Notes under the pieces: generated by a model | Told to the model about the DNA's origin: nothing | What the model saw: only the letters and a program-made list of their open reading frames with translations | The model's database searches: none | Made by a program: the position numbers and the translations under genes | Source of the DNA: Siphonodentalium dalli | Lineage: Eukaryota > Mollusca > Scaphopoda > Gadilida > Siphonodentaliidae | Length of the DNA: 64,000 nt | Reading direction: 5' to 3' | Assembly (NCBI GenBank): GCA_032622095.1 | Contig: CP136067.1 | Span: 133,551,990 to 133,615,989, forward strand | Shown: positions 9,001 to 55,800 of the stretch, piece after piece | How positions within the stretch are numbered: the stretch's first letter is position 1 | Layout: every line of letters starts with the position of its first letter

Positions 9001-12000
9001 CCTCCAGATGAGTGATAGATCGTTCCAATGTATACTTTTATAACTGGTGGGAGAATCCGTTCACTATAGTAAGGGTTAAAAAGGGTTGGAACCTCAAATT
9101 ATACAGTATGGTGTTTTCAGTTGTACAAGTATATTTTTTAGAACATTCAGGGTGAAAGTTTTATAGATTAAAATTTAAAGTACATTTAGGAAATAGTGTT
9201 CTGTCCTAGTTGTTACTTCAGTTTGCAGCTGTTATTTTAGATTTACCTTTTTCGTAGCTTTGGGAAATGAGAATTTCTGTGAGAAGTTCCAGTCGGGATT
9301 ACTGGTGCCCTTGATTGATGGAGATTTAACAAACTCATCTTCTTCCTGGATCTTATACCGACAGCTGATTGTCTGAAAGAGAGACAGATGTATAATGTGA
9401 CCTGGGCCTGATATGATTGACAGCTGATTGACTGTAAAAAAGAGAGATAGAGGTTACACTGGAACTTACTCAGACTGCAGATCATCTGAAAGAGAGAGAG
9501 AGAGAGGGGAGAGAGAGATAAATATAATGAACTGGGACTGACAGGAAGAACTGGCTGGTACATGTGACAAGGATATCTGATAGACTGGAATAGAGATATA
9601 GGGCCAACTAGATCACATCCATTATACTAATTATATGTATATTTATCCTTTACACAAGCCTTGACATAGCGTGTCTGTCATTTGCAGAATGAGGTCCCCA
9701 GAGGGTGACTTTAGTAATGCTGTGGGGTAGCATCACTAAATTCACCCTCTGGGGACCTCATTCTGCAAATGACAGACACGCTATTTCAAGGCTTGCCTTT
9801 ACATCACTCAAATCTTTGGTATATGGTTGAATGTAAAGTCATTAATTTTGATAATATATTTATTCCAACAATAATTCAAACCATTGCTCCCTATTTTCAT
9901 TCAATTTCTGTATCTCATGGAGTTGACCTTCAGAGAAAATGAAAAATTAACATGCTACACATCACAATTTCATACTCTTTGTGAACTTTCCCAGCTTTAT
10001 AATAAAATTAAACCATAAAACCAGAAACATATTTTCATATTGTTCTAACTCCCTTCAATCCCTAAAATGGTGTATTGCTGCCTTAATATAGACGAAGAAA
10101 CCAGCATGACTCGTAATATTTGTGGAGAAGATATTGGTGATGAATAAATGAACTAAAACGATTCCACCAAAGAGGTACATTGAATCGTCGTAAAGCTTAC
10201 CAACAGTTACTATATTCACCTAATACAATGAACCAATATATGCCTTTTTTTTCTGTTGCCCAGTATGTAACTTATTTATTGATCGTCCGGGTGAGGGCAT
10301 ATTTATGATTCTGGTTCATCGAGGCCAATATATTTTGAAAATGGCCAAAGATACTTTCATTTGGTTAAACATTATGGCCAAAATGTTTTCAGGGCTCTAG
10401 TCAGCAATCACCTCTCAAATTATCATCATATCTGTGTGATATCCTTAATTCGTTAACAGGTAATAAGCAGATGCTCACCTGTGTATGAATAGCAATCTAT
10501 CAAAAGTCATACATTCTTACTTATCAAAACAATGATGATTTAATAGCTGTTAGAATGTTGTCCTTTCTAAACCCTTCCATGACTGAGCTTACTGCAATTT
10601 TGCGCAAATCTTGTGCCAATGCATTCTCTTATATATGCGAGTCTCCCATAGGGAGCATCGCATATATGAGAGAATACATGGGCCTAACAATATTTACCTT
10701 GACCTTGTACGCCAGCACATTCTCTTATATATGCGAGGCTCCCTATGGGAGACTCGCATTTATAAGAGAATGCACTGGCACAGGATCTTTAATGCTGCAC
10801 CAGTGCAGCTCCTGTCATGACAGGGTTAATAAATTGACCATATAGAGAGGATACTCACTGTGAATTTTGCTGGCAGGCCCCTCGCACTGATGACATTCAC
10901 CATAAAGTTGATGTTTTTCCCGACGAGTTCATTCGGGTCTTCTATATAAATGTCATCCGATTCGGTGTAGATTTTACCCTTGTCATTACATGGAAGGACT
11001 TCAATCTGAAAAAATTTAATTCAAGTAAAATTAGTTTCAATATTTCTAGTGAAAAATTATTCTGATTACGTGCAGATTTTACCCTTGTCATTACATGGAA
11101 GGACTTCAATCTGAAAAATGTCGATTTAAAGATGCATAATCCGAATTAATCGGGGGAAGAAAAAAAATATTTGAGTCGAGGAACCCACCACCATCAAAGC
11201 TCAGAGTGATCAGATATCGATTTTTGAAATCTATTATTTTTCACCACCGATAATTTTTAGTGGCCCAGTAAAGAGTAGATGAGAAAACTGTGTCAAACCA
11301 AATTGCAGATGAAGATGGATAACTCTAAAATCAAGTGGCTTTTCTGTGTTAGATATTTGACAAACCGGCAAAATTTCGTTGAACAGAATGTTGATAAATA
11401 ACAGGTTTTGGGCAATTTGATACTATAGTTGACTGTGGTTAGCATTATTTTTGGGCAATAAAATGATTCTGATAACTGAGCGGCATTTAAAAAAATGTTG
11501 TTGTTGTGGAATCTGATGACATGGGGACCATCGACTCAGATTGAGTACCTCTAAAGGGGGACTGTATTTCAATCCAATTGAGACACCTTCTAACTAATAT
11601 ATTCAACGGTAAATATGAAATAAATTAATTAATTTTAGTCGAGGATGTGCATGCAAATACAAAGAACTGCAGATAATAATATGATAATTATACTAAAAAT
11701 AGTATTTGACTGCATTCATTTACTAAATTACATTATCTGAAAAGTTTCGGTATAATTAATTAATTAATAATTAACCATTCTTCGACATAAACCAGTATTA
11801 ATCCTACCGATTTCACTAGCTGGTTACATCAAAGGAAATTAAGACTAGACCACACTATTACTTTGAGCACACCATCTTCAAATCAGAATTCTAGAGATTT
11901 TGATCTGATTGATTATCATCAATGATTATCATCGCCTTTGTAAAGAGATGGGATGACATTATAACTCACATTGAGCACACCGACTTTCTTTCCTTGATAA

Positions 12001-15000
12001 TCGATCACATGACATTACAACTAATCAAACACATGGCATGATAACTTACATTGAGCACACCGACTTTCTTTCCTTGATAATCGATCACATCCAGCTGTTC
12101 TTTGGCTTCAATCTGAAATAATGATGAATAAAATATTGGGGACAAATTCGACAAATATATGTGCCAAATTTCCCCACAGCACAAAAATTTAAGCTATTAA
12201 AGGATCCCTTAACCCTGTCTACACTAATATGGATTCTCTCACACAGTTAAAAAAGTACAACAAACGACCTATGGCCGTTTGTTGAAATTGTTATCTTAAC
12301 ATTTCCCTAAGGGATGACTACTCATCAATGATGCTTCAGTAAACAGGTCAGGCACAACATGAATTCAACTATTATAGTTATAATATTTATGTCCAAAATT
12401 GTACCTACCTTGTATTTAAGTATATAAATAAAAGCAAATAGCTGGCTCATTTGGGGAGCCTTTATTCAGCCTTTATTCATTTCTTATGAAACCTCTCAGG
12501 TACATGTATGTGGCATGTCAGGGGCTAATACAGGCTGAATTTGACCAGGTATCAAAGATTTGGACAGCCTAAATTTTCAGCTCTAAATACCATAGCACTG
12601 ATGTCATAAATATCATAATACCATATAAGATAATGCACTGGCACTGGCACAGGGTCTTTAATGCTACATCAGCGCAGCTCGCGTCACGAAAGGGTTAAGT
12701 GATTTGACATACTAATATTGCGACTCACAGCGCATAAACTTGTTTAACTCAAGTATTTCAATAAGTTTGTATAAAAATTTCCAGAACAATACAACATTCT
12801 TTCATATAAATTAAATAAAGTGACTCCCTGTTTTTTTGTGGAAACTATGTGATCGTACAAAACAGTGCACACACACAGGCAAAGTGCACTTGTAGCAACA
12901 TTACAGCATATGAACAGTTTCCTGATAAAATTGGGTGGAAATAGACTGAAGGACAAGCTGATTTTAGGATGGAGTATGACCATACCATCCATATAAGGTA
13001 TTGGACAGAAATAGACTGACGGTCAAGCTGATTTTAGGATGGGGTATGAACATACCATGTAAGGTATTTGATGGAAATAGACTGACGGACAAGCTGATTT
13101 TAGGATAGGGAGGACGGGTTCTTATGAACGTACCATATAAGCTATCGGCTGGAAGAACACAGTCGTGCTGCCGATAAGAGCATCCTGAGTATAATCTTCA
13201 TCGAATGGATCCTTTTCCTAAAACATAAATATCTCGAAGTTACTCAAATGAAGCCATACTGGCCATGACATGATAGAATATATATTATAAGTTACAGGGC
13301 GAGTTGTTGCTGGATACGGTGTCATATGAGCCGAGCCCAATATTAATCTTGCTGAGCCTCATGTCACTGTAGCAGGCAACTAAGAGTCTGGTAATGATTA
13401 CATCATGCTTTCCAATTTGAATTACTTGTACGAATCATGATAAAACTTCACACGCATTTATATAATGTTGTTATTTTTGTATTCAACTTTGATGTACTCT
13501 TTACATTAATGAATTTTTAAAATACCAGAAATACCAGAAAGGAACCCATTACTGTACAAATTATATGTATGTTCGTTCGACAAACTCTCTGACTGATTTT
13601 TCACACATATTAACCCTTTCATGCTTGGGTCTGCGCTGGTGCAGCATTAAATATCCTGTGCCAGTGCATTATCTTATATATGCGAGTCTCCCATATATAA
13701 GAGAATGCACTGGCTTACAAGTTCAAGGTAAATATTGTTAGGCCAATGCATTCTCTTATATATGCGAGGCTATATAAGAGAATGCACTAGCACAGCATCT
13801 TTAATGCTGCACCAGCACAGCTCCCATCATGAAAGGGTTTAAGAGTAGTCTCCCTTACCTTTGGCATATCCCACTCGTCCCCTTCAAGGAACTCCTGGTA
13901 CATCTCTTGCATGACATACTTCCTGTTTGTAAACTTCGGCTGAGACCACACCCACTCATGCTTTGTCTCCAAGTGCGTCACTTTTATCATCACCTGAAAT
14001 TTAACATTTAAATCAGTGAAAATTCAATTCAATTTCTGTTTTGGACTATTTAAGTAAAAAAAAAAGGGTTTTGGATCTCGGGCAATTTTTGTTTTCAAAT
14101 CAGTGATGGAGGGAGGCTTTAATTATTTCTGCACATAGTAAGTATGGTAGTGCTGAAATGGTTTGGGATTTTCAGGAGATGACTAGTCGACAGAGGTAAA
14201 CGAATACTAGTCGATTAGTTGGACCCCTTCCAAAATTTTGCGTTTCTATGCCCATATGTATAAAATGGGCCATGTGGCATCACAGTTTTGAGTATCCAAC
14301 TCTCCATGTCAGAACGTTCAAATGGAAAGCACGAGACCTGTATAATCTCCCGTATTGCCCGTGAGTCTCCCAATTTGATGTCTTAAACCCTGCGCTCCCG
14401 CAACCTCCATATAATTCTCACGGTTTGGTAATGCAGGTAATAAAATAATTTCATTTAAAATAAAAATTGTCGCCGGTAACCAGGAAGTAAATAAACTTGA
14501 GTTCACCACCCATGCATGACTGATGGCAAAGGCATCGTCAAAGGAACAATACATTAAGTTAATATGTGTTAACTGTTACAGTTTACGTGATAATTTGGTC
14601 CATGCAATGACACTGCTGTCGTGATAGCATATAGGTAGTGCTTTTTCCCAATTAAACGACTAGCAGATTTTGGGGTCGACTAATTTAATAATCGCATCGA
14701 CGTCGATTAGTCGGATAATCGTTCAACACTAAAGCATCATGACCGGATCACAGATCTGCAGTTATTGGGATTCGACCAGCTTTGCCATCGCTGGATGGCT
14801 TATATTGGCTTATGCAAAATGCACCTTAATACCGACTGAGCCATTGAAGCACCTGTATGTTTCAGTTTGACCTTGACCTACCTCTGTTCTGCCCTTGAGT
14901 TCTCCCCTGCCTTCAGGTGTCACTATCATCAGCTCAAATTTCATCTTCTTATCAAGCTCCTCGCTTATAGAGTTAGCTTCTTCTATATGTGGCATCATCT

Positions 15001-18000
15001 CGAGCAAGTCATTCTGTAGCAGCAGATCATCTGTGGATTATTAATCATCAATATTTACATAGCCGTCCGTTTTACACTAAATCCTGTTCGGTAATTGGTC
15101 AACTGCCAATTGATTCACCCGTTTCATACCCCAATAACACAGACAGTAAAATGAACATGACGTCACAAATTGTTGACCTAATCACTAAATGTGGCCGGCA
15201 GAATAATTGGTGCTTTTAAAAGTTCAGCCAAATTGCATCTGAAGCCAGTTATTTATATCGATCACATAATCGTTGGTAAGTGCTTGGAAATATTATTTTG
15301 GGCTGACATAATATTTAACCTCTTCGCTGCTATGACGTCCGTATCTATTACGGACGTAAAAGTGCACGCCGTGTGCTATATGGTCCGTAGGTACTACGGA
15401 CCTACTTCAGCACACTAGAAGTAGGCCATCATACATAACTGGAACTGAGAGATTAGTGCATCGGAATAACTGTATCTCGACGTTTCAAACAGTGTATGAT
15501 GTTCCACGATTGTGAACAATAAAAGCCTTTCAGCTGAGTCACTTTTATGGTTCATTTGGCATTCCCGCTATATTTTCCCATTGGAAAATGCCAATAACGT
15601 CAACAGCCCAGCACACGACGTCATAACGTCATTTAGCAGCGAAGAGGTTAATGTGCTGCGTGGGCTGGTCTCAAATTCTCGGCAGATTTGGTGAAAATAA
15701 ATAAGAATACAATCAGCGTTTTTAAGGGAATAAATCATCAAAAAGCTATATAAATATAATAAATGAATGTAGTGGGTGTGTGTTATTAGGGGATAAGGCG
15801 CTGTGGTCATTGGGGGGATATTTAGTGAGAACAATGTGCCCTAACAACAACAGCAGTACTGGAATCCCCAATAACACACACACCCATTACATTCATTTCT
15901 TAATTATATGGGAGGCTAAATTCACACTTTTCAGCATAATTCAATCGCGTCGCAGCCAACTTAATCCTTTTTTATTAAATTTATTCAATATTCAGTTATA
16001 AAAGTATACAAGCCTTAAAATAGTGTGCCTGTCATTTGCAGAATGAGGTCCGCAAAGGGTGAATTTAGTGATGCTACTCTGAACAGCAGGCTAGCATCAC
16101 CAAATTCACCCTCTGGGTACATCATTCGGCTTATGCCTCATCTTCTGGGAAGTATCTATAGTCTCAAATTAACATTGTTTTTAGTTAGTTTTTATCCTTC
16201 TATTCAGGCCTCAGCTTACCAGGCGAGTAGGGCGAAATAGTCGCCCTCGACGCCTCGAAGTCGCCTTAGTGTCGCGCCAGGGAGAAGTGAAGTCGCCCTC
16301 CGATTTCCCCAAAATTATCCTACGGCTGTAGTAAGCGATAAGCCATGCATGTTATAGTGTTACAAATCAATTATGAATATATCGCCTGCGAGTCAAACAG
16401 TGACAAAATGTTGACACAAGGTCGACTCCTTTTGTTTAACAGCGCTGAGTAAGTAAATGCGGTCTTCAATGTCCAGACAAGGATTATAATATATCAAACA
16501 AAGAAGCCTTCCGTTTTGGCCATACTTAATAAAGTGTTGGTTTCTGCTCGTCCCGACTGACTGCTTTAAAACCGCCGACTCAAATTATTATTATATTGCC
16601 GATTTAAACATTTTGTTTGTTTTAGTTCCGTCTTTGTGGTATTCCGTGTTTTTACGCAATAACAGAATGCTAATCGAACGGACCTCAAATAATTCTATTG
16701 AATCCGTACTCCCTTTAAATTATCCGATGTTGCCTGATGTTACTGAATATATTTGACGACAAAATTATCCGAGAGCACCATTTTATAGTGTGCAAATAAA
16801 GTTTTAATCGTTGTATTGCCTTGTTCGAAATAAAACGTGATCCATAACCGGAAAATCGTAATTTTATTCCCAATGATTCAGTGATTTTAGAGACACTCGG
16901 TAGTCGATGTCAAGACTCAAGGCCGTTAATTGTGGCATATATATGCAAACCAAATGCAACAAACAATCTATATTACATTTAAATGAAAAATTTGAATTTT
17001 TTTCCATGATAATGTTTTTTTCGTTTGTTTAACCTCATATTAAATAAATTATCAGATGAAATTATTCTCCAGTCTCTCACTTCTCCCTATTTTTCTCTCA
17101 CTTCTCCCTATTTCTGCCAGAGGGAGAAGTCACTTCTCCCTATTCTCAACCTGCAAGCTGAGGCCTGCTTCTATTCAGTTTCTATATCCCCTAATTTGCA
17201 GAAGATAAAATGAACAATCGAGGTGACCATTCTATGACTATACTATGCTAGCCTGCTGAGCGGGAAAGCATCACTAAGTTCACCCTCTGGTGACCTCATT
17301 CAATTCAATTCAAATCAATATAATAATATTAATATAGATATACTTTTTGATTTATTGCCACCATCCACATCAAATCCTGACTTTTTAGCGACTTCTTCCT
17401 GCGCCATTTCGAAGTTGATCTCTGGGAAGGGAATCTTTGAAGCATCTCGTTCTTTGGGGTTGATGTAAACATAATACTGTGTCGTACCAAATATTAATCT
17501 GTAAGAGAAAAACAATTAATTGAAAATACATGATTCAGACACAAATGTGTGGATTTCTGTAGAGAGCTAACTTAGGAAGGCTTACTCAAGTGAATGCGAT
17601 TGTTTTTGCAAAAAAGATCATATTTTTTCAGCAGTATAAAAATGAATTTGGTTGAAAATAATCTGCATTGGTATATTTTTATACCCCACCTCCATATAGT
17701 TTTTATGCACCCCTCACATAGTTATGTTTTATACCCTTCCTCACATAGGTATGTTTTTATACCCCCCACATAGGTATGTTTTATAACTCCCCACACAGTG
17801 GGCTAGCATCACTATATGGACACTCTGGGAACCTAATTCTGCTTAGGCCTAAACTGCTATGGGAGACCTAGGATCAGAATGAAGTCACCCAGTTCACGTT
17901 GGTGATGTTCACCCATTAGTCATCTCGATTATGCATTTATCTTCTGCAAATTAGGGGATATAGAAACTAAACAGAAGGGAAAAAGAAACTAAAAACTATG

Positions 18001-21000
18001 TTAATTTGAGACTATAGATACTTCCCTGAAGATGAGGCCTAAGCAGAATGAGTTCCCCAGAGGGTGATTTTAGTGATGCTAGCCTGCTGGGCAAGGTAGC
18101 GTCACTAAATTCACCCTCTGAGGACCTCAATCTGCAAATGACAGACACACTATTTCAAGGCTTGGTCATATCTTTCCTTGTAAACATACAGTAATGCCCT
18201 AAATAATCGACTAGTGAGAGCTTTCCGATGAATGGCAACAAGTCATATTTCCGACTAAATCCTGAAAAGTTACCCATAATTCTGCGGTGGTTAAGGAGTC
18301 GATTATTTTGGGCATTACTGTACTTGTCATTTTATTTCAGTACTGTTTTTGTCATGACTGGTTTGGTCATATATTTTCATGTAAACATACCTGTCGTTGT
18401 GTTTGAGTTCTGTTTTTGTCGTGACTGGTTTGCCATTTCTCAGCATCTTCTCGTTTGCCTCATGAGGCTCGATACTAAACACATCACCGGCTTTTGTGAT
18501 TGTACAATGAACGTCCAATATACTGAAATATGAGAAAAGCAGAAATTATATCAGTTAAAGGTACTCAATCCGATCAGAGGGTCCCCATATCATCAAGATA
18601 CAACAACAACATTTCTTCAAAATATGCTTTACTTGCAACAAAATAATGCTAACCACGGTCAACTATGGTATCAAATTTCCCAAAACGTGTTATTTATCAA
18701 CATTTTATTCAACGAAATATGGCCGTATTATCACTTCAGTATTCACAAAATTTGACCGTATTAACACTTGTTTTTAGAGTTATCCATCTTCATCTGCAAT
18801 TTTGACCAAGAACATCCATTTGATGGCGTGTTTCTGGGCCACGAATAATTGAAATAACAAACTTCAAAAATCGATATCTGATCACTCTGAGCTTTGATGG
18901 GTGGGTTCTTCGACTCGAATCAAATATTTTTTACACCTGAAGCCAAAGAAAAAATCATTTAGGAGCGTTAAATCGGATTGAGTACCTTTAACTGAGTACG
19001 GGACAGGACTCAGTCCAAAACAGCATCAACCCAACCGACATCCCAAGCTGCTGTGGACCGAAAAGACTTGGTCTATGTACTGTTAACAGCAGAGAGCTAT
19101 ATTCGATAAAAATTTGTGCATGCTTCAGCTGGCGATGCTGGTGAATTGAAAATCTGAGATATCCCCAAAGGCATACTTTATAAACATACTTTATAAACAA
19201 AATGATCATACGAGACATTTTTGACCGATCAAAGATTGAATTAAATGCATTATATGAGCTTTCAAACTCAAATATAAACAATCATTCCACATGACTCATA
19301 TTGATTTCACTGACCCACGTGCTTGTGTTGATATCTATCAAACATGCTATAATTAAAATACTCAACACTGATTGCAGAATATCTTATGATTTTGGGGCGA
19401 TTCCATTCATTACGCTTGGCTACAATGAGTAAATTACCCTGGGTAAAAGTGAATGGAATGATTTTTGGTGACCGGAGTAATCTAAAAATAAAAATATAGT
19501 TACAACTGCAAACAAAACATAATTTTTTATTCAGGAAATTTGACAAAACTCACTGAGAGCTTTCCGATGAATGGCAACAAGCCATATTTCCGACTAAATC
19601 CTGAAAAATTACCCATAATTATACTGTGGTTAAGGAGTCGATTATTTAGGGCATTACTGTAGATTGCTGTCTACTGAGGATTAGGAAAGACAGCTGAGCA
19701 ATTGAGTAAAATGTTATTTGCAAATGTTTATTACAGGGGGCGACTCAATCCCATTGAATGTAATAGGGCTTCACGGTATTTCGTTTTTTAGTCATATCGC
19801 GATACTGTTTTTGAAACCGTGTAGTTGGTTTCACTTTATGCAAATAGTCGGTACATCGTAGCCGCCGGTGTGGATATTAATACCGACGATATCACTATCA
19901 GTGTCAAGTATTTAACAACCCTCAACACCTCTAATGCTGAGACAAAGGCCATGGCTAACAGCCTCAGTTTAGCGTGGGCGTCAAAATTAATTAACTCTCA
20001 CTGCTCCATAAGCGTTTGTCAACACACTGCGGACAATCAAGTCGGCATGCCTCATTGAACGGGCGGAAATTGATGTTTATATAGTCTGTTCTCAGCTCAA
20101 TATTGCTGGAAGGTTTCCTGGTCAAATACAATAAAAAATGTGTGGTGTTTGTATAATCTGGAGACTCAATGACGCGCGTTCAACAGCGCCACAAAAGCTT
20201 ATCCATTAGACGTATAATGCTCTAACTGATTAGATAATTAATGAAAGGTATATAACTACACGATCAGGTATCAGTCCTATACATCCAGTTCTCATGCTAC
20301 TTTCGAAATGGAAAAGTTAAAATCAGATACGGACTTACTTCCAAAACCAAACACTACATCACCTGTGTGGACCTACTTTGGTTTAGAATCCGGCGACGAT
20401 GGCACACCCAAAGACGACTCACATGCGATATGCCGATTATGCAACAAGAAGGTGGCTGCAAAATCCGGCAACACATCAAACCTTCTTACTCATTTAAAGA
20501 ATAACCATCCTCCAACATATAGTAAGATTAACATTGTTCGGAAACGAAAGCGCGATGAAACGTACATACCAACAAAACAACCAATGATAACAAGCGCAGT
20601 GCAGGCATCATCATCATATGAAACGAACTCACGCCGATGGAACCTTCTGACATCATCAGTAACGGAACATATTGCAGGAGATATGGTTCCAATATACACC
20701 GTTGATCGTAAATTCTTTCGAAAAATGTTACGGAATTTCGATCCCAGATATCAGCTTCCCTGTCGGAATTATTTCAGTGATACTGCTATTCCAAAATTGT
20801 ATAATGATATGCGTGAGCGTGTGCTTCTGGAGATGAACGAGGTTGAGTTTTTCTCTGCAACAACCGATATGTGGTCGTCAATCGGAATGGTTCCTTATTT
20901 AGGGTTCACGGTGCATTTTATTGACAAGGACTGGAGCCTACAATCTCGTGTTCTAGAAACATTGTATTTCCCAGAGTCTCACACTGGTGCAAACATCGCC

Positions 21001-24000
21001 GAAGTTATGAAGGATGTACTGAAATCGTGGAACATAACAAGTTCGCAGTTAGTTTGTCTGACGACCGATAATGGCAGTAACATCGTCAGTGCTGCAGAAC
21101 AGTTAGAGTGGACTCGATTATCGTGTTTCGGCCACAATCTTAACCTTGCTGTTAACAATTCAATTAAAGATGACAAGCGTGTCACCAGAGGTCTCGCAGT
21201 GTGTCGAAAAGTGGTGTCTGCTTTCTCAACAAGTTGGAAACGGCGCCGTGCTCTCACTGTTGCTCAAAAGGAGTTGAAACTAGACCAGCATTCACTAATT
21301 GCCGATTGTCCCACACGATGGGGTACAAAGTATGACATGGTAAAGCGCATCTCGGAACAGGAGGCACCTCTTCGCAAAGTTCTTAGTTCCAGCAACAAAA
21401 CGTCACATTTAGTTCCCACATGGCAAGATAATGACGTATTTGAGGCTATCATTGAAGGACTCGAACCAGTGTCTGATTTTACGGACATATTATCGGCCGA
21501 AAACTATGTGACAGTATCTTCCCTGAAGCCAATGATGGACCACCTCGACACAGAACTACTTAAGACTGATAACAACAAGCACAAACTGACACGTGATGTG
21601 AAAAAGCGAATTAAGTCATATATGGATAATAAATATGACGACGATGAGACAGATCGACTCATTTGTTTGGCATCTTTCCTCGATCCACTCTACAAAAATC
21701 GTTTCCTAAATGAGGAGGACTTAAAGTTTGTCAAATTAGACATCACTGACGACAAAACAATGCATGTTGCCAATAAACCAACCACAGAAATAGTTGACGA
21801 CATTCAACCAGATGCTAAGAAGAAGAAGACACTTGCGTCACTGTTCGCTGCAAAAACTACAGTTTTCGATGGTGACACGTCTGATGATAAGTTCATTTCG
21901 AATGAGATTGACAGCTATCTGGCATTGCCATGTGCCACTGACGATACCAACCCATTGGACTGGTGGATAGTTAACAATAAACAATATCCGAATCTAGCAA
22001 AGTTCGCTAAGAAATATCTATGTGTTTGTGCAACAAGCGTTCCTTCTGAACGATTATTCAGTAAATCAGGAATGATTGTCGCACCGATGCGATCGTGTTT
22101 AAAACCAGAGAAAGTTAACATGCTATCATTTCTCGCTTCCAATTTGTGAAAATATGAAATCAATACATGTTTGCTGTTATTATTTACACGAGCTTCATTT
22201 TTAATGTCATAAGCGACCCGCAGTTGGTAGGGAATTCCCGATTACGTCAGGCACTTATAAATATATCTATCCGTCGTATAAAGAACGAAACTCAGGACCA
22301 TTTATATTAATTATTTATTTGATATACCTGTCAAAGCAACATGTGTTCATAATTATCATTATCAAATCAATAATGCTATATTTTTGTCTGCTTGCTACTA
22401 GTATCATTATCAAACAGTTCTAGTAACTTCTACTCAAATTTATTGGTGACGATATTTAGTCATATCGCGGTATCATTTTCCACACCGTAGTCGGTATTAA
22501 AATCCGGATACCGTGAAGCCCTAGAATGTAAGTGAGAGTATATGATGTTGAAACTTAACTAAGGACAGCTCATACCTTGGACCATGGAGTGGGATGTCAG
22601 CACTTGAGCTTTTGCCGACGGTGATTGACTCTGACTCGAAAAAGTGAATGATATGATCAGATAGCTGTGGATCCATATTCAAGTTGGATAGGTGAGGGAT
22701 GGTTTTCTTCTTAGCGATTCGATCTGAATCATCTATTGCAGACTAAAAAAAAAAGAATTTAAATAATCAGTACCAGTAGTGAGTAAACTCAATCATTAAT
22801 CAACCCTATCTTTATCATCCCTTTCATGACAGGAGTTGCGCTGGTGCAGCATTAAAGATCATGTGCCAGTGCATTCTCTTATATATGCGAGTCTCCCATA
22901 GTTCATATTAGAGAATGAACTGGCTTACAAGGTCAAGGTAAATATTGTTAGGCCAATGTATTCTGTTATATATGTATATGCATATATAACTTATAAGAGA
23001 ATGCATTGGCACAGGGTTTTTGCAAAATTTCAGGTAGCTCCAGTCATGGAAGGGTTAATTACTTATTAATGGGTAGTTCCCTTAGGAAATGTTCATATTA
23101 ATGGCCATTTGTTGAATATATTATCACAACTTTACCCATCAATTAATAGCAATCCTGTTATCTGTTTGTCTGTCTGTCGTCTGCTTATATTTCCTGAATA
23201 CCCCTCCAGATAAATAATAGACCATTCCAGTGTATATATACTTTTATAACTGAATGGGGGAATCCATTAAATAATGAAAGGGTTAACGGATAGGCCACAC
23301 ATTGGGTAGCCACGTCAATGTTGTTTTAAGCCAAATAACAGAGATAAGTCTTAACCCTTTCAGTGCCAAGTCCGATTTTTGTATCAACCCATATTTCCTT
23401 GATGATTTTTCAAATTTATTGATTATAATAATGTGATACATTGATGGAAAGAGCTCTTAGATTGATACAAAAATCGGACTTGGCACTGAAAGGGTTAAAG
23501 ACATACTATGGACTTGATCGCGTGCATGAGATTGATGTTAGTACTCCGCCGCTATGCTAACCTGGGGCATGTAGCATTCCACTAACATTGCCGAAAATTT
23601 CAAAGAAATCGACCAATTCACTCCATAGAAAACATCGTCTGAACTATGCTCAATTGTAAATATTTACATCTCAATTCAGGATGCAAATATCGGCAATAAA
23701 CTCAGACAAATGATTTTGCCATTGAGCATCATTGCATTTAATTAATATTTTAGAGTGACGGTGTGTGATGTCAATTTGGATAAATATTTGTAATAAATAA
23801 CTACTTTGAGCAAGATTATTATCAATTTATATTTGATCACCCAACCAGAGCGCTTCACATCAATTTAATTAAAATGAGTCAGACCAAACTACAGAATACA
23901 GATTCACAAAAGATAGCAGAACAAAGATTCAAACAGAGGGGGTGGGGGATACATACCCCGGCTTCTTTCAGTTTATCTTCGAACGTTTTCTTCATCTCCT

Positions 24001-25564: not shown

Positions 25565-25621
<57 letters not shown>

Positions 25622-34600: not shown

Positions 34601-34817
34601 TTTCATGGATTGAACTTATCTGACTGAACGGTGTAGAATAAATACAGAACAAAACTTGCATCATAATCTCGAATCTTTTATCGAACTCGTTGCGGACAGC
34701 GCAAAGGGATGCCATCCGTAACTCATTCGATAAAAGGGTCTCGATTAAGATGCGCATTGTGTTCTGTCTATAAATTACTTATACCAGCCTCAATGAAAAA
34801 TTTACAGAACATCACTT

Positions 34818-34861
<44 letters not shown>

Positions 34862-43800: not shown

Positions 43801-46800
43801 TTTTTCCCATTATTTTATTATTTTGGATTTCTAATTTGGTTTTTCAATTTGACTAAAATGGCACACAAAAATAAGAAATTACCAAAAAATTGGCCGTTTC
43901 GGAACCAAAAAATGAAACTTTGGTAAAATTAATAATGCATGTAACTCTGTAAATTATTTTATATTTCTGTTCTACAGTGATGCCCTAAATAATCGACTCC
44001 ATAACCACAGCAGAATTATGGGTAACTTTTCAGGATTTAGTCGGAAATATGGCTTGTTGCCATTCATTTGAAAGCTCTCACTGAGAGCTTTCCGATGAAT
44101 GGCAACAAGCCATATTTCCGACTAAATCCTGAAAAATTACTCATAATTCTGCTGTGGTTATGGAGTCGATTAATTAGGGCATTACTGTATATATAAAAAT
44201 TTTCGGGCGATAATGAATGGGTGTTTATCTTCTTATAGTACCTGAATAACCCTACAAATTAAGTGGACCATTTAAGTGTATATGTTTAGAACTAATGGGA
44301 GACTTCATTCAGTAATTATAGGGGAGAATCACTCACCTGCTCGTTGCATTCATGTTGGTAGCAGCGACGGTCCGACTTGTGGTTCCTTCTTCCATTCTCT
44401 TCTCGATATCACTGTATGACCCGACGGGGACGACGCGAAGGTTGTCAGCTAAAAGATTAATATAACATGTTCAGTTACAAGTATATGTGACCAAGTCTGG
44501 GCATAGTGTGTCTGACATTTGCTGAGGGTGAATTTAGTGACGCTATCCTGCCCAGCGGGATATTATCACTAAATTCACCCTCTGGGGGACCTCATTCTGC
44601 TTAGGACTCATCTTCTAGTAAGTATCAATAGTCTATATTAGCATTGTTTTTAGTTACTTTTTCCCTTCTGTTCAGTTTCTATTTCCCTTAATTTGCAGAA
44701 GATAAATTGCATAATCGAGGTGATTAATCAGTGAACATCACCAACTTCAACTGAGGAGCTTCAATCTGATCCTAGGTCTCCCGTAGTGGTTGAGGCCTAA
44801 GCATAATGACGTCCCCAGAGAGTGAATTTGGTGACACTAGCCCATTGTGCAGGATAGCGTCACTAATTTCTCCCTCTGAGGACCTCATTCTGCAGATGTC
44901 AGACACACTATATCCAGGTTTGCATGTGACAATGACATATTGATGTAAAGTAAAACCTCTCAAAACCGAACACCCTTCGGACCGGCCCTTCTTTTCGGTT
45001 TAGAGAGGTGTTCCATTTACAGAAAATCGCACTACGAACTGAATGTATTGACGTCGTTACTATGAGTTGTCGAGGCAAAACCAATCATTATTGATTAATA
45101 TAACTTTATTCAATGAAGTACCAAATAAAATATATAAACTATAGATAACACATGGTTATAATAAAATGTACCTATGGTAAATTATATCTGCATGTGTTTA
45201 TTAATTAATCAACACTTCCCTAATTCCTTTAATAATGTACATTGAAAACTGGAGGCAGGAAAATTACCTAAGTGATGTCCATTGATGACGTAATGAGAAT
45301 ATCTGTTGCTGCTTGCAAGTAAACAACTTGGATTAACTGCTATTTTTGCATTAATCATTGTGCCCTTAATTATATGTAATTTATTGTTTTATTGAATAAA
45401 ACATGAAAAAATAAGTTTGATTTGGCTGTGACCTAATTGAAGTGTGGTATAATTTCCGGTTTAACAGTACACGCGATGTGTCAATTTTACACGGAAATCA
45501 ATCAGTTTACATGGAAAATAAAATCGGATGCGTACTAATTTTGCAAAATCATTAAAATGAAAATGGTTGGGGCGCCAGAATAGGGGCGGGTGGGTCACCA
45601 GATACATAGGTCTTTTTTATTTTGGCCTTATTAATGAAGATTTTTGTATTGTGTATTTTTTAATGAAAAATGCTTTCAAATTAATTAGGTCTGTTCAACT
45701 GACATAAGAAATGTGGATAACTTATGGCGTGCACAAATTAAAAAAAAAATTATATTTATCACATTTATTATTTTGAAACAATAAGAAAAGTGATAAATCA
45801 GAATTGATCATTTTCGTTATACTTACCATAGAATCCAGTTTTGGGACTCTGTCTGACTCGCAGTCCACCTTTCTTCGTGGCTTTGGAGTTAAGTAAATCT
45901 CGAACCTGTTCGTTGTAGATTTCCAACATGCTGAATGTGACCTACAATAACAACAACAACTGCTTCATGAAATTTTGCGAAAACCCTATGCCAATGCATT
46001 CTCTTATATATGCTAGTATCCAGTAGTGAGCCTCGCATATGTAAGAGAATACATTGGCCTAACAATATTTACCTTGACCTTGTAAGCCAGTGAATTCACT
46101 TATAAGATGTGAGAATGCACTGACACTGGATCTTTAATGCTGCTCCAGCACAACTCCAGTCATGAAAAGGTTAACTGATGTAAAAACAAACTGCCAATGA
46201 TGTAATTTAACTGCATTCTCAATTGTTCACTGAAGGTGTGAAATAAATAGAGGATATCTACACTTTTTGGTTGGATATGGAAAAAAAACGGTATCTCATC
46301 AGTGATGACAAAAAAATTAATTTCCAAGAGTGGCTCTGCCACGAGCGGAAATTCATTTTTTTTTTGCTACAGTGTACTATTTTTTGGTTGGATATGGGAA
46401 CTATCTCATGAGTGATTACAACAAAATGAATTTCCATGGGTGGCTCTGCCACGAGTGGAAACTCATTTTTTTGTCATCACAAATGAGATATCTACCATAT
46501 CCAACCAAAAAGTGTAGATGTTATAGACAGAACACAACGCGCATCTTAATCGAGAATCTTTTATCGAATGAGTTGTGGATGGCGCAAGGATATATTTCGC
46601 GAGAGCGTAGCTCGAGCGAAATATAACTTTGCGCCGTCCGCAACGAGTTCGATAAAATATTCGAGATTATGATGCAAGTTGTGTTCTGTATATATTCTAC
46701 ACTGTTCAGTCAGATAAGTTCAATCCATGAGTGTCACCTCCATTGTTACTATAGCCACCTTTATTGTGATTTAAGTCTGACAAATAGCTAGTAATTATGG

Positions 46801-49800
46801 GGGGATCACCGGAAGCGGATGATCGACGTAATGTACGTCATCTTTCTTGGCGACAACGTCAACAAGAATAGTTCCGGCTTGTATTCCACTAGAGGTATAC
46901 ACTACTATGTATTCAATGGCTGGGATTCCGTTGAATACATGTGCCTCACGCCAATGGGTGTGGAATAAATATGTTTATTATATGCTCCGCTCAGTTGGCC
47001 CATTACTCAACTCGAATGAAGAGTAAAAAGTGCAAATTTGTATAGCCAAGCACAGCCATGGTAATGAGCTTGAGCATATAAAAATAGTTCCATTTTCAGA
47101 CTGATTATTGAGGGATAAAGGGGCTAACATCATGGTATGTTTATGAATGAATATGTTTATTATAGTGACATATGTATACAAGCATCCGGCCCATAGGGCC
47201 TATAAGTCACTTTGTGTACGTATACTATTTACAAATGTTTAACAAAAAAATTTAATTTACCACTAATTTATAATTATTTTTACCACTTATTACAGGGACT
47301 TTTAGCAGTCTTCCATCAAGACCCGTCGGAATCACTTTTAATTTTAGAGCGGATGGATAAGAGTGAGATATCAATAACTTACTAGACAGATACCGGTAAC
47401 GTTTTTTATCGGATGCAGAAATACTACTATTTGATAGCTTACCATATGATAAACAGTGATATATAATCAGGCACATGCTGTTGTCGGACTTATAGACTAA
47501 AAGCATTATCCAAACAAATGAAAACTGATTTGGCCATTAGACAATGGTACAAAATCATCAATCAGACGTGCATGCACGTTCAGTTTCTGGAGGTCAAAAT
47601 GCATGTGTTCAGTCTCTTACAGACTCAAAAACCTGAGAAGTTTCACATTACAGAGGTAATTCTTAGTGAGATACATTTGGGACCGGAGAGTTCTTTTGGT
47701 GTGGTGAGCATGAGGTGACTCGGTTTATAGAGGGTCTGGTTTGGAATGGTTTTACTGTAATAACAATAAATATTGTACTGCCCTAAGTAAATGACTCATT
47801 GAAACGGGGTGCGTCCCAGTTAAACCATATTTTGATTAGACATTAAACGCGGTTACAAACAATTAATCATCAACTGAATGGTAACTTATAGTACAAATGC
47901 AGCTCCAGAAAATACAAGTTATATACAGTAATTCCCTAAATAATCGACTCCTTAAAAACAGCAGAATTATGGGTAACTTTTCAGGATTTAGTCAGAAATA
48001 TGGCTTGTTGCCATTCATCGGAAAGCTCTCAACAAGCCATATTTCCGACTAAATCCTGAAAAGTTACCCATAATTCTGCTGTGGTTAAGGAGTCGATAAT
48101 TTAGGGCATTACTGTATATGTCATTGAAATTCGCTGACAGTCAGCAGTTTGCTACAGTGTACTATCTGCAGCAAGGAATATAACCGAGGTTTCTTTACCG
48201 AATTTAATCGCTGATCCAGTCCCGGATCCGTTAACTGTGGTGCAGTTATGGTTTGACCAGTTATAACACATAACACATAACCCCAGTTACTGGATTAATT
48301 GCATGTACAGTAATGCTCTAAGTAATCAACTTCTTAACCACAGCAGAATTATGGGTAACTTTTCAGGATTTAGTCGGAAATATGGCTTGTTGCCATTCAT
48401 CAGAAAGCTCTCCCCGAAGAATGGCAACAAGCCATATTTCCGACTAAATCCTGAAAAGTTACCCATAATTCTGCTGTGGTTAAGAAGTCGATTACTTAGA
48501 GCATTACTGTACTTAGGGCACTATAGTAGGATGCATCGCTAAAGATGTGGTCTCTTTTAAGGTTCAAATATATTAAACACTGTGTTACACACATAGCTTA
48601 TTTATAAAAATAATGACCAGTTTTATATAGCGATTAACTAATCACTTGCTCTAACACGCTTGGTACAATATTTGATTTGAAGCTCTAAATTACATCTGCG
48701 TATTTGTATGGAGGAATAAGATAGGTCGATAGATACATGATATTACCGATTTGCAAGCTTGGTGCAATATTTTATTTGAAGCTCTAAATTACATCTGCGT
48801 ATTTGTATGGAGGAATAAGATAGGTCGATAGATACACCCTTCGGACCGACCCTTCTGTTCGGTTTATAGAAAATCACACTACCAATCTGCAGAGACATCA
48901 ATTTAACCCTTTACCCAACAGAACGGCCCTGTGCCAATGCATTCTCTTATATATGCGAGTCGACCATAGGTCGCCTCGCATATATAAGAGAATGCATTGG
49001 CTTAACACATTAAAAATTATAAAATTGTTAAAGAATGTAAGAAAAAATGGTAAAAAGTGTTAAAAAAAGATTTTTTTAGGCCAATGCATTCTCTTATATA
49101 TGCGAGGCGACCTATGGTCGACTCGCATATATAAGAGAATGCATTGGCACAGGGCATAACTGTAACTATCACAATGTGGTCAAGGAGCCGGTTCCAATGA
49201 TATCCATATTTGTATGGTTTTATTGAGACAGACCGAAGATATTTTAGGCTGTTGAAGCTTTATTTGGCCGGTTTTGGCCGGTTTGTTGGGTAAAGGGTTA
49301 AGAGCTCAGCATCAAGTAAGTCAAATCTACTGCAAGGCTTTCAGTTGGTATCGCGTTCGGATATCGGAGGTTAAAATTAATGTATTTGCTCACTTATAGA
49401 CTAAAAAATCAATGCAATGTTCAGAATAGAGAGGTTCTTTTAGGTAGAATGCACTTGGGTGAATTCGGGACCGAACAAATTGCTTGGTATGGGGAGAGAT
49501 TCGGTTTATAGAAGTATCACAATATAATGAAACAAGAGCATCGCGCGGGTGTGTCAAAATACGTAATTCCAACAAAGGGCCATAACTTTGCAACCCAAAT
49601 TCAAACTTGACCTGTATTTTATGCTAATAAACCAACATACTAAATTTAATTCCATTCAGTTCAGACTTTACTAAAGTTATCATCCAGAAACGAAAATTAT
49701 TGCAACAAAAAGGGCCATAACTTTGGTGAAAAAAGGCGGGCAGAATCCGAATTTGAACTAGACCTGTATTTTATGCTAGTAAACCCAAAATACCAAAGTT

Positions 49801-52800
49801 CATTCCATTCACTTGAGACTATCTAAAGCAATCCAACGGAAAACAAAAGCAAACAGATGGACAGATAGACAGACCAATAACATAACACTTCCTGTTTTTT
49901 TTAAATAGGCGTATAAAAATATTCGAGTCATAGCAATTCTCCAGCTGTTTTAAATAAGTGAGAGAAATGCTGAAAATTTATTTTTACCATGTCAGAAACC
50001 ATGCACAACTGGCATGGTGAGGAACAGACTACTAGAAGGAACTTACCTCAAATTTAATTTCTGCTCCCTCAGCTTTCTTGGCATCAATTCCCTGGAAGAG
50101 CTTTTCCATGAACAAGGGTACAATACCTGTAAGGAATATGAGAATAGATATAAGGCATAAGAGGATATAGTTTGAGATAGGTACATTAACCCTTTCAGTG
50201 CCAAGTCCGATTTTTGTATCAACCCATATTTCCTTGATCATTTTTCAAATTTATTGATTTTAATAATTTTAATAAAGCTCTAAGAACTCTTTCCATCAAT
50301 GTATCACATCATTATAATCAATAAATTTGAAAAATGATCAAGGAAATATGGGTTGATACAAAAATCGGACTTGGCACTGAAAGGGTTAAAGGCCCATTAG
50401 TAGATTAACCCTTTCTATACTACATTAAATGCCCTAAATAATCGACTCCTTAACCACAGCAGAATTATGGGTAATTTTTCAGGATTTAGTCAGAAATATG
50501 GCTTATTGCCGTTCATCGGAAAACTCTCAGTGAGAGCTTTCCGATGAATGGTAACAAGCCATATTACTGACTAAATCGTGAAAAATTACCCATAATTCTG
50601 CTGTGGTTAAGGAGTCGATTATTTAGGGCATTACCATAAATAATCATTGATGAGTAGTTCCCTTAGGAAATGTTCAGATTATAAGTTCGACATACAACCA
50701 TTTCCCACCAATTAATAATAGTCATTTTGCTCTTGTATTATCTGTTTTTCTGTCTGTCATCTGCTTTTGTTACCTGAACACCCCTCCAAATGAATATTAG
50801 ACCATTCCAATGTATACTTTTATAACTGAATGGGAGAATCCATTCAGTATAGAAAGGGTTAAATTGATAGGCGGTACATTTAATATAACTAATTGGGCAA
50901 AGCACATCTCCAGTTAAGATTTTTAGTGACTCTTTAACACGTTGAATGCAACTCCCATTCAATTACACATTCCTCGAAATTAGCCACAGCAACAAGCAAT
51001 TCCGTGGGAAACTCTGTGGCAACATTTGGAATCTAACATGCCACATCATTAAATTTGTTTTGGGAAATTTTTCCTAATTTGGAAAGCTGAATTACATGCA
51101 AAAATTATGAAATAATAAAAAATAATAAAAAAGATAAATTATATATACAAGATAAAAAATTGGGTAACTTTAACCATCGACCCACATCATGACGTCATTT
51201 TGTAAACAATGCCCATAGTTACCAAAGTGGATAAGTGAAACAGTGGACAGTGATAATTTTGTTGGGGGATAAAGGAATATTTTACATGATTTACGCCCAA
51301 TTAAATTTGTTTCTGCTTCACACCAATACTAATATGATTACAAGAGCATAAAATAAGACAATTATAGCATTTGTTTCCATTCCGAAAGACCACAAATTCA
51401 GTTGGGAACACTGAGTACTTTGGAATTTCAATAGACTATGAGGGTGTTTATACTGGCAACAGATGTTGTAGTGTCACTTTAGATGTGCGACTTTTACACC
51501 CGATGGAAGTGTGTATATTTTATGAACTTCCACACAGACGTTGTAAATTTCTATCAATAAAGTTACAGCCTGTCATTCGGATTCATTGATTTCAACCAAG
51601 CCTGGATATAGTTTGTCTGACATTTGCAGAATGAGGTCCCCAGAGGGTGTATTTACTGATGCTACCCCACAAAGCAAGATAGCATTAACCCTTTACCCAA
51701 CAAACCGGCAAAACCGGCCAAATAAAGCTTCAACAGCCTAAATTATCTTGGGTCTGTCTCAATAAAACCATACAAATATGGATATCATTGGAACCGGCTC
51801 GTTGACCACATTGTGATGGTTACAGTTATGCCCTGTGCCAATGCATTCTCTTATATATGCGAGTCGACCATAGGTCGCCTCGCATATATAAGAGAATGCA
51901 TTGGCCTAAAAAAAATCTTTTTTTACCATTTTTTCTTACATTCTTTAACAATTTTATAATTTTTAATGTGTTAAGCCAATGCATTCTCTTATATATGCGA
52001 GGCGACCTATGGTCGACTCGCATATATAAGAGAATGCATTGGCACAGGGCCCTTCTGTTGGGTAAAGGGTTAACAAATTCACCTTCTTGCGACATAATTC
52101 AGCTTATGCCTCATCTTTGGGGAAGTATCTACAGTCTCAAATTAACATTGTTCTTAGTTGGTGATGTTCACCCAATAGTCGCCCTGATTATTCATTTTAT
52201 CTCCTGCAAATAAGGGGACATAGAAACTGATCAGAAGGGGAAAAAGTTACTAAAACAATGTTAATTTGAGACCAGGGTAATTTCCAGGCCAGTTTTGGTA
52301 CCTGTAACAGGTAGAAAGAAGAAAAATTCCTCAGATAATTTGTTTTTGACCATTATTACTAGAAAACAAACACTAAATCATCAAATAAAGCAATAAATTG
52401 TCATTTTATGGCAGTATGTACATGTAGTTCAAGGGGGAGGCCACCCCATACCCTCCCCAACTTAGGGCTGCGGCCTTCGGATATGACTTTGGCATATAAA
52501 CAGGTGTCCCCAAATAATTACTGGAAACTACACTGTTTGAGACTATAGATATTTCCCAGTACATGAGGCCTAATTAAGCAGAATGAGGTCCCCAGAGAGT
52601 GTATTTGGTGATGCTAGCCCTCTGTGTGGGTAGCATCACTAAATTCACCATCTGGGGACCTCATTCAGCAAATATCAGACATACTATATCTTGTAAGAGT
52701 TACTACTGTATAACTTTTATGAGTACATTACCTTTGTTGGTTCCGTATCCAACAACAGACCAACTTTTACCAGAACCAGTCTGACCATAAGCGAAGAGCG

Positions 52801-55800
52801 TTGAGTTGTAGCCTTCCCATGAGTTCTTCAGTACACCCTCTCCGAGATCGTCAAACACTTGTTGCTGAAAATAATAAACAACGACATATTATGGACTTGT
52901 TCGGGTGCGTGAAACTGATTAGTTAGTACTCAGACGCTATGCCAATTGTAGCAATGTAGCATTCTACTAACATGCCAAAATCTCAAGCAAATCGACTTTC
53001 CCACTCCATAGAAAACATTGTCTGAACTACGCTATATTGTAAAAATTTACTTCTAAATAGAGATATACCTGGCCTGCAAATTTCCAGCCATTACAGTGTG
53101 ATGTTAAATAGAGACATACATGTACTGGCCAGGGGCGCCGGAAGCATCCAAGGGCAGGGGGGGGGCAGAGCCTACAAAAAGGGCACTTTTCCGAAAAAAA
53201 AGGGCATTTTCTCCGCAAACTCGGGAAAATAACCATAAATTCATTGTGGCAAAAATCCCTATTTTAAAGGTATTTGTCGGTTTTTATGGCCGTTTTGTGA
53301 TAAAATTGACAAAAAATTAATATTCCTTGTGAAATTGGTGGTATTTAGACAAAAATAGTCACATTTTGCTATAAAAACACGAGATTAAACACACAAAAAG
53401 CATTTTCTGTCTCCAGAAAAAGGGCAAGTCCTGCCCCCGCTCGCCCCCCTTGGTCAAGGGCAGGGGGGTCAGCTGACCCCTCTGCCCCCCCTCTTCCGGC
53501 GCCCCTGGTACTGGCCATTGTAACAGGGTGTGATATCAAATAGACATTCATGGCCTACAAATTTCTTACCATTAGGGTGTGATGTTAAATAGAGACATGC
53601 CTGGCCTGTGAATTGCTTGACATTAGCGTGTAATATTGAATAGAGACATACATGTACATGGACCGAATTTCTGGACATTAAGGTGTGATGCTAAATAAAG
53701 ACATACCTGGCCTGCGAATTTCTGGCCATTAGGGTGTGATGTTAAATATATAGACATACCTGGCCTGCGAATTTCCGGCCATTAGGGTGAGATGGATCAG
53801 GTCCATAGTAACCATTGGACTCTTCTTTGGATCCATCATGTGACCAGTAACTGTGATCAAATGCAAACTTCTTGGCATCTGACGAATCGTTGGGGTCATT
53901 GATTATAGTTGTTGGACCGTTCATCTCAACAATAAGGGTCGCATTTCTTTCTCGTTCTCGTCGGTTGTAATTATGAGTTAAGAAATACTAACGTGTGAAT
54001 CAAATTTAATTAAATTAGGGAGGAAACTATCGCATAATGAAAAGGCATGTTCATTACCGCTATACTTAAAGTAATTGACCACCAATAACGTGGTGTCACC
54101 CCGTTAATACCGCGGTACTATACCGCAGTATCCTCCAATACCGCGGTACTGATACCGCTTGTTAATGCGAACAAGTATGTGGGAGTAAATACCTCCCCTC
54201 AAAGAGTTCCATGAAAATCAGCGCGGTATTCAAAAAAATTAATGCGGTGCCCTGCCCGCAAAAGACCGCGGTATTCAAAAAAATTAATGCGGTGCCCGCT
54301 AAAAGACTGCGGTATCATTATCGCCCAATACCGTAACTCCACCGCCGTGACCATCTCGATACCGCTACCGTTTATTACCGGTATCACCGCGGTCATGACC
54401 GGGGTATCACCCCGTTTTTCTGGTCAATTACTTTGAGAATAGCGGTAAGTAAGCTCGACTCTGTTCATGTGTAAAATCTCCACACAAGATCAGAGATACA
54501 TGTATGGAGTCTCAAACTAACCCACACAAGCAATTATGCCAGTAACTTAATGCCGCCATTTTGGAAGAAATATTATCTCCCGTTATAGTTTGTGACGTCA
54601 CGACCTCACTTGGCTGTTTAACGCTAAACTGTATCCTGTGCAATAGTCTGTGTTTAGACATGAAAATAAATAAAACAGCAGATTGAATGTTTGTTTTGCA
54701 CAATAAATGATTATCTGTTGTGAATAGATTATAGTTTTATTCACGAAAGATTGTTTGGTTGTCATATTTGCACATATAGAAGTCGTGTGAGTTTGGCCGA
54801 GATTGTCACATTCAAATGTTATGTGACCATTAACTTGCTGTAAATTAATTGTTCAAATTTATAAGGCCAAAACAAAATTAATGCGTGTTTCCCGTAACGA
54901 GTCCAATAAAAATAGGGGCGGGCGGTAGGCTTTTCGTTTTATTTTATTTTTTCATTTTATTTTTTTATGGTCTCTTGTGGGCCATGACTATACTCTCCCC
55001 TGCCTAATAATAGTGATGGCCAAATAATAGTGATGGTGCACATTTTCGGGTGTTATTAATAATAGTGATGGTGCCAAATAATAGTGATGGCGCACAATGA
55101 TGGCATTTTACCATATTTCTACTATAAATGAAGCAGAATGTAGGCCTTAATTAATTTGGCATTGTTGGGCAAGTTCCCATGCATGCAAGTTGTTCTCATT
55201 GGCTCCTTTAATAATGACAGTAAGTAATTTGGTAACAGTACCAGTCTGAGTAAGGTAAAGTACTGTGGTGATTGTAGCCAGGTTGGGTGGAAGCAGGCAC
55301 GGCTTTCTCAAAATCACAGCGAGGCTGCCAAGGAGGCCTCGCTAAATAATTTGCGAGGCTGCCTCACCTTTTTTGGGGCTGATTTTTTATAAACTCTAAA
55401 GATAGTTATCTTTCTTATGTCGCACATCGGCTATTTAAAATCCGACATAAAACTTAAATCCGACATAAAACGTAAGTTGTGGTTAATAATGTGGAACTGT
55501 TGCCAAGTCATCGCATTCATAATTAAACTGTGCTTTGAATACACGGACATGTTATTGTATTGCTTTATTGCATAGATTTAAATACATGTTCCTGTGTACA
55601 CACAGAAGCTACTGCGGTGTCGTAACTTTCCATTTATAGCCAAAACCAGTCACGCATGTGTGCACACGACTCACAGCTTCTGTGTCTTCATGATAGCGCA
55701 TAATTGGGTCACGATAACAGTATTGTTTGGAGAAGTCGGCCACGTCAAGTTAAATTAGTTCATCAGTTGTCACTCAGATTAGTTTCACTGATTATTTTAT

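What the first reader, a model, noticed from the sequence alone, without database searches (positions are those of the whole stretch)
9360..53790. Splice junctions of one gene repeatedly captured in tandem duplications
At least nine of the 24 introns of the kinesin gene have tandem repeats whose unit straddles an exon-intron boundary: donors of exons 2 (~7 copies), 7 (21), 9 (3), 14 (2), 18 (about 3) and 19 (2), and acceptors of exons 8 (7), 20 (2) and 21 (2-3). Units are 35-105 bp and unrelated in sequence. Exons are only about 5% of the gene, yet only two clear tandem arrays (32 bp x5, 99 bp x2) avoid junctions. Exon homology makes junction arrays easier for me to notice, so part of the excess may be ascertainment. 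If real, it suggests a junction-linked duplication process or selection tolerating or favouring spare splice sites.
Basis: partly seen in the sequence, partly recalled or inferred. Interest (0 to 1): 0.9.

Follow-up and report, generated by a model that had tools for sequence, protein, structure and literature searches.

The report
Splice junctions caught in tandem duplications
In one intact animal motor-protein gene, short head-to-tail DNA duplications cover splice junctions several times more often than random placement would give, leaving rows of spare splice sites (up to 21 in a row), but only a whole-genome test could say whether this is a real process or a striking accident of one gene.

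Summary
Confirmed with corrections. The window holds a 25-exon, 24-intron KIF28/KLP-6-like kinesin-3 gene (minus strand, 60710-2727) with one open frame. All nine junction repeats exist: donors of exons 2 (5 copies), 7 (21), 9 (3), 14 (2), 18 (~3, weak at the junction) and 19 (2); acceptors of exons 8 (7), 20 (2) and 21 (3, weak). Exon-blind detection still shows an excess: 7 of 15 or 8 of 14 clear, non-dispersed tandem duplications straddle a junction against 1.4-1.8 expected (p 5e-5 to 1e-3). It is weaker with TRF alone (4 of 12, p = 0.02) or with transposon-borne repeats kept (9 of 34, p = 0.005; 9 of 41, p = 0.04). The gene was picked because of the pattern, so p values are optimistic. Decoy sites look neutral, and the junction has no fixed place in the unit. 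I favour ordinary short tandem duplications, tolerated because the exon-side splice site stays intact, with better survival there plus the choice of a striking window explaining much of the excess. A junction-linked mutational process is possible but untested: no genome or relative was available.

The parts
2727..60710 (-). KIF28/KLP-6-like kinesin-3 gene, start codon to stop codon, 25 exons; intron 1 reads AT-AC, the other 23 GT-AG
   Evidence: tblastn exon finding, splice-site reading and continuous translation; best PDB relative KLP-6 7wrg, E 9.2e-73, and Pfam kinesin and FHA domains on joined exon pieces
53525..53794 (-). Exon 2 donor array, about 51-53 bp x 5; real junction 53760/53759
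   Evidence: TRF 5.2 copies; copies at +0, +53, ~+106, +159, +210
30737..31952 (-). Exon 7 donor array, 58 bp x 21, every copy ends TGGCTGGGAG|GTGAGT; real junction 31906/31905
   Evidence: TRF 21.0 copies, 98%; 21 exact donors, three variable positions among the 20 decoy copies
29233..29669 (-). Exon 8 acceptor array, 62 bp x 7; real junction 29239/29238
   Evidence: TRF 7.0 copies, 94%; six upstream ATTACCAG copies at 62-bp steps
27888..27991 (-). Exon 9 donor array, 35 bp x 3; real junction 27981/27980
18321..18432 (-). Exon 14 donor duplication, two diverged copies (offset 67); real junction 18391/18390
   Evidence: 38/45 identical
12930..13154 (-). Exon 18 donor array, 66-78 bp, about 3 copies; the exon-bearing copy is weak; real junction 13134/13133
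   Evidence: TRF 12930-13110; junction-reaching hit score 34, 26/32
11953..12090 (-). Exon 19 donor duplication, two copies 80 bp apart; 41 exonic nt identical; real junction 12050/12049
   Evidence: 55/58 identical
10940..11118 (-). Exon 20 acceptor duplication, two copies 105 bp apart; real junction 11006/11005
   Evidence: 66/73 identical; TTTTTCAG|ATTGAAGT in both
9346..9501 (-). Exon 21 acceptor, three weakly similar copies (-113, -59, 0); real junction 9373/9372
   Evidence: scores 41 (34/43) and 35 (25/30)

Best explanation
Ordinary short tandem duplications arise in this gene from error-prone joining of staggered breaks or slippage, and a few grow into minisatellites by unequal exchange. 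Those that take in a splice junction leave the exon-side splice site and the exon intact, so splicing can still give the normal message and the extra copies sit in the intron as decoys. The excess at junctions is best put down to such duplications surviving better beside exons, where other insertions are fewer, together with the fact that this gene was chosen because it looked striking. Shown: the arrays, the intact frame, the excess in this gene. Inferred: use of the exon-side site, the break-repair origin, the survival advantage.
For: Continuous 25-exon frame with the outermost site at every repeated junction. Junction position in the unit varies widely: 35, 47, 6, 11, 42, 21, 41, 66 and 27 exonic nt. 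Units are unrelated. Strict loci: the excess is clear among diverged duplications (5 of 7 vs 0.93, p 7e-4) and slight among young ones (3 of 7 vs 0.81, p 0.04; lenient 3 of 12 vs 1.26, p 0.12). Within-window dispersed repeats cover 14% of intron within 50 bp of an exon and 35-45% at 50-400 bp. Decoy sites fit neutral ageing: donors 26-28 of 30 keep GT (6-8 of 10 outside exon 7; two are ambiguous by register), acceptors 9 of 9 keep AG. Tandem duplications from joining of breaks with protruding ends are shown in mouse stem cells (PMC5730883, passages).
Against: The young/old contrast is not significant (Fisher p 0.59), and the age classes are confounded with length, since short repeats are seen only when near identical. 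If exon constraint preserved the repeats, their exonic parts should match better; they do not (20 of 207 exonic vs 10 of 157 intronic positions differ, Fisher p 0.34). Allowing a twofold survival advantage still leaves 8 of 14 vs 3.1 expected, p 0.0045 (lenient 9 of 24 vs 4.7, p 0.03). Among loci within 400 bp of an exon, strict straddlers remain in excess (8 of 9 vs 3.7, p 0.005), which a general near-exon effect does not predict. Dispersed-repeat cover falls to 20-30% beyond 400 bp, so disruption is not simply greater further in.
Confidence: 0.5

Rival explanations
1. Junction-linked birth: something tied to transcription and splicing, such as polymerase pausing, nicks or RNA-DNA hybrids at exon edges, makes staggered breaks there, whose repair duplicates tens of bases across the junction.
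Against: No fixed register to the junction. Young duplications, which should show birth best, show little excess (3 of 7, 3 of 12). [quoted passage not shown] the repeats here are at later exons. One gene, chosen for the pattern.
Confidence: 0.25
2. Pure chance plus choice of window: duplications fall at random and this is the extreme gene among many scanned.
For: The number of windows read before this one is unknown; the loosest counts are weak (9 of 41 vs 4.83, p 0.04; TRF 4 of 12, p 0.023).
Against: Strict tests give p 5e-5 to 1e-3, so many genes would have to have been looked at.
Confidence: 0.15
3. Selection keeps the copies as spare or regulatory splice sites, for instance as poison sites that lower output.
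For: All tested decoys at the eight junctions other than exon 21 would put an in-frame stop into the message; 21 donors and 7 acceptors flank one intron.
Against: Stops are expected in AT-rich intron DNA anyway; exon 21 decoys give no stop (0 of 2); exon 2 decoys have lost the site (GC, GA); decoy sites age like the rest.
Confidence: 0.05
4. Assembly artefact: repeats inflated or created by the assembler.
For: Long near-identical arrays such as 58 bp x 21 are hard to assemble; no reads could be examined.
Against: Most arrays have diverged copies (78-95% by TRF or alignment), which assemblers do not invent.
Confidence: 0.05

Closest known systems
Tandem duplication crossing an intron-exon boundary in the potato RdRp gene (Ma, Lan and Niu 2016, PMC4974935; passages seen)
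   Same: A tandem duplication includes the end of an intron and the start of the next exon, with all splice signals copied.
   Different: One event, one extra copy, and it made a new spliced intron; here nine junctions of one gene are affected, up to 21 copies, and the gene model works without any new intron.
Intron gain by duplication of an AGGT-containing exon segment (Rogers 1989 model, as described in PMC4974935)
   Same: Tandem duplication supplies extra splice sites.
   Different: There the source is exonic; here existing junctions with intron sequence are copied.
[quoted passage not shown] known to me only from citations in PMC4974935 and PMC2809761)
   Same: Duplications inside genes that carry splice junctions.
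   Different: Not read here; whether arrays of this copy number at many junctions of one gene were recorded is not known to me.
Intronic minisatellites in earthworm metallothionein genes (PMC12783039; passages seen)
   Same: Minisatellite-size repeats in introns of an invertebrate gene.
   Different: The passages seen do not describe repeats that cross splice junctions.

Membership tests
KIF28/KLP-6 branch of kinesin-3 | Kinesin motor domain plus FHA domain | tested here: met
   PF00225 E 3.7e-36 and PF00498 E 2.8e-5 on joined exon pieces with X spacers
KIF28/KLP-6 branch of kinesin-3 | Closest relative by sequence is KLP-6, also outside the motor | tested here: met
   7wrg best hit for the motor-FHA pieces (E 9.2e-73) and the only hit for the C-terminal pieces (E 1.3e-30); only solved structures were searched, no tree was built
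Tandem duplication across an exon-intron boundary | Adjacent direct copies that contain both exonic and intronic sequence of one junction | tested here: met
   Clear for E2, E7, E8, E9, E14, E19, E20 (7 of 9, score >=50); weak for E18 (34) and E21 (41)
Intron gain by tandem duplication | A new intron is spliced from the duplicated segment | not testable with these tools
   No RNA data; the open frame needs no extra intron
Minisatellite | Tandem units of roughly 10-100 bp in many copies | tested here: met
   58 bp x 21, 62 bp x 7, 51 bp x 5.2
Junction-linked duplication process | Excess at junctions across many genes of the species | not testable with these tools
   No genome held; no relative found in viral contigs, the one collection scanned for it

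The most novel reading that the evidence does not exclude
In this species short tandem duplications are born preferentially across splice junctions, through breaks linked to transcription or splicing, so that splice junctions are hotspots of minisatellite birth and the spliceosome routinely has to pick the exon-side copy out of rows of identical sites.
Probability: 0.15. Interest if true: 0.85.

Novelty: new variant of a known kind. Interest (0 to 1): 0.5.

Why it matters
If it holds across the genome, splice junctions would be mutation hotspots with a direct route to new splice sites, shifted exon edges and new introns, a long-standing question about where introns come from. Even if it is only this gene, intron 7 is a natural experiment: 21 identical donors at one end and seven near-identical acceptors at the other, in a gene whose frame requires the first donor and the last acceptor. 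That makes models of splice-site choice (first made, nearest to the partner site, or fixed by the exon) directly testable with RNA from one tissue.

Tried and rejected
Self-BLAST for tandem hits was dropped because I judged that BLAST discards hits close to the main diagonal. My first aligner run timed out; the next versions let the 21-copy array's score run on and hide loci downstream of it, including the exon 8 and 9 arrays; repeated masking mended this, and counts after that use loci.

GC-driven duplication: units range from 23% to 47% GC, introns average 37%, so no GC preference is evident. Clustering of affected exons (7-9, 18-21): 5 adjacent pairs vs 2.9 expected, p 0.07, not claimed. 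Exon constraint keeping repeats visible: not supported (20/207 vs 10/157). In one search the E18 and E21a-2 comparisons aligned a stretch to itself and were not used, and E7 was not included. Rfam: no match at gathering score. Search for the same DNA or gene in viral contigs: nothing. The single genome-contig scan (bacteria and archaea) was not used.

Paper searches for earlier reports of the pattern. They returned the boundary-crossing potato case, but none of the listings or passages I saw describes repeats at many junctions of one gene; these searches cover open PMC papers only and cannot show that it is unpublished. Searches were for mechanism and gene background; of them I opened PMC5705216 and PMC5730883 (passages).
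Full report
What is there. The window is eukaryotic (no prokaryote genome is held for it). On the minus strand it holds a complete gene, 60710 to 2727, with 25 exons and one continuous open frame. The best solved relative is KLP-6 (7wrg; E 9.2e-73 for motor and FHA pieces; only hit, E 1.3e-30, for C-terminal pieces), with Pfam kinesin and FHA domains. Intron 1 begins ATATCCTTTT and ends AC with TTCTTAAC upstream, which matches the U12-type AT-AC pattern as I recall it; the other 23 are GT-AG.

The observation. TRF gives 58 bp x 21 (exon 7 donor), 62 bp x 7 (exon 8 acceptor), 51 bp x 5.2 (exon 2 donor) and 35 bp x 2.9 (exon 9 donor). Alignment adds exon 14 (38/45 identical), exon 19 (55/58, with 41 exonic bases identical) and exon 20 (66/73). 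Two are weak where they meet the exon: exon 18 (score 34, 26/32), although the array beside it is clear, and exon 21 (scores 41 and 35). The nine arrays are not related to one another (best E 0.07).

Is it more than chance? I wrote a band-limited local aligner that knows nothing of exons. At its threshold 20 shuffled windows gave 5 false hits in all, and the real window gave 45 loci; four low-complexity loci, none covering a junction, were dropped. Non-dispersed duplications with score >=50, period >=30 and gap <=50 number 14 in the gene; 8 cover a junction against 1.41 expected under uniform placement or 1.75 if only non-dispersed DNA is allowed (p 5e-5 and 1e-4). Exon 18 counts there only because its array reaches the junction through the weak hit; requiring a strong hit across the junction gives 7 of 15 against 1.46 or 1.81 (p 2e-4 and 1e-3). 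Lenient settings give 9 of 24 against 2.1 or 2.6. Shifting all loci together by 200 bp or more never reaches 8 in the strict set.

Results that weaken it. With transposon-borne loci kept, the counts are 8 of 19 (p 6e-4), 9 of 34 (p 0.005) and 9 of 41 (p 0.04). TRF alone gives 4 of 12 (p 0.023). All of this is one gene chosen for the pattern, among an unknown number read.

Birth, survival or selection? Young duplications (identity >=0.93) show little excess, 3 of 7 (p 0.04) or 3 of 12 lenient (p 0.12); diverged ones show more, 5 of 7 (p 7e-4) (exon 9, at 62/67, fell just into the diverged class). The difference between the classes is not significant (Fisher p 0.59), and short repeats are visible only when nearly identical, which confounds age with length. 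Dispersed repeats cover 14% of intron DNA within 50 bp of an exon, 35-45% at 50-400 bp and 20-30% beyond, so the strip next to exons seems shielded. I therefore lean to survival plus the choice of window, and keep a junction-linked birth process open.

How the gene can live with it. At each repeated donor the frame needs the first copy, and at each repeated acceptor the last, that is, always the exon-side site. Using a decoy would bring an in-frame stop into the message in every case tested at eight junctions, and a frameshift without a stop at exon 21 (for exon 7 the first two decoys were tested, the stop lies 1 nt into the extension and so applies to all). In the exon 7 array the 20 decoy copies vary at only three positions and all keep the donor. 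Elsewhere 6-8 of 10 decoy donors keep GT (two depend on the register chosen) and all nine decoy acceptors keep AG, roughly what neutral ageing would leave. That the exon-side sites are the ones used is inferred; no RNA was available.

Mechanism of each duplication. The units (period 35 to 113 by alignment) include the junction at any place, with 6 to 66 exonic nt, and several two-copy cases carry spacers of 22-70 bp between the matching parts (exon 19: 22, exon 14: 22, exon 20: 30, exon 21: 70). That fits joining of staggered breaks with filler or later decay better than simple slippage; tandem duplication by end joining of breaks with protruding ends is documented in mouse stem cells (PMC5730883, passages). 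Growth to 21 near-identical copies is the usual course of a minisatellite (general knowledge). R-loop edges at exon-intron junctions, one possible link, were seen only at first junctions in human cells (PMC5705216, passages), and none of the repeats here is at the first junction.

Relation to known work. A tandem duplication crossing an intron-exon boundary that made a new intron is known in potato (PMC4974935, passages). Each array here is of that kind; the number of junctions affected in one gene, the copy numbers and the lack of need for a new intron are what differ. My searches found no description of this recurrence, within open PMC papers only.

Verdict. Interest 0.5: a good natural experiment for splice-site choice now, and potentially much more if a whole-genome test shows the same.

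Noticed in passing
60665-53967 (intron 1, minus strand): The first intron begins ATATCCTTTT and ends AC, with TTCTTAACTCAT just upstream: the pattern of a U12-type AT-AC intron (recalled consensus), splitting the conserved kinesin motif RPFNxRE.
   Followed up: partly
19764-22523 (intron 13): A hAT transposon with a 634-aa open frame on the + strand (zf-BED and Dimer_Tnp_hAT domains), terminal inverted repeats and an 8-bp target duplication gaatgtaa, inserted about 53 bp past the exon 13 donor.
   Followed up: partly
whole gene: Dispersed repeats (copies elsewhere in the window) are sparse within 50 bp of exons (14%), densest at 50-400 bp (35-45%) and 20-30% further in.
   Followed up: no
25565-25620 and 34820-34857: Pure poly-C tracts of 56 and 38 bases in introns, possible assembly or biological oddities.
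   Followed up: no
39586-39781 and about 20 other places: A palindrome-rich mobile-element-like motif (GAGGTCCCCAGAGGGTGAATTTGGTGA) occurs 21 times in the window with up to 3 mismatches; at 39586 it forms a 103-bp tandem pair.
   Followed up: partly
9459-9501 (minus strand): The outermost exon 21 acceptor decoy is followed 16 nt later by CTGA|GTAAGT, a good donor by eye, so it could act as a tiny cryptic exon (sequence).
   Followed up: no
30717-30736 (minus strand): The 21-donor array is followed at once by an acceptor-like stretch, TTGTGAAATTTCAG.
   Followed up: no
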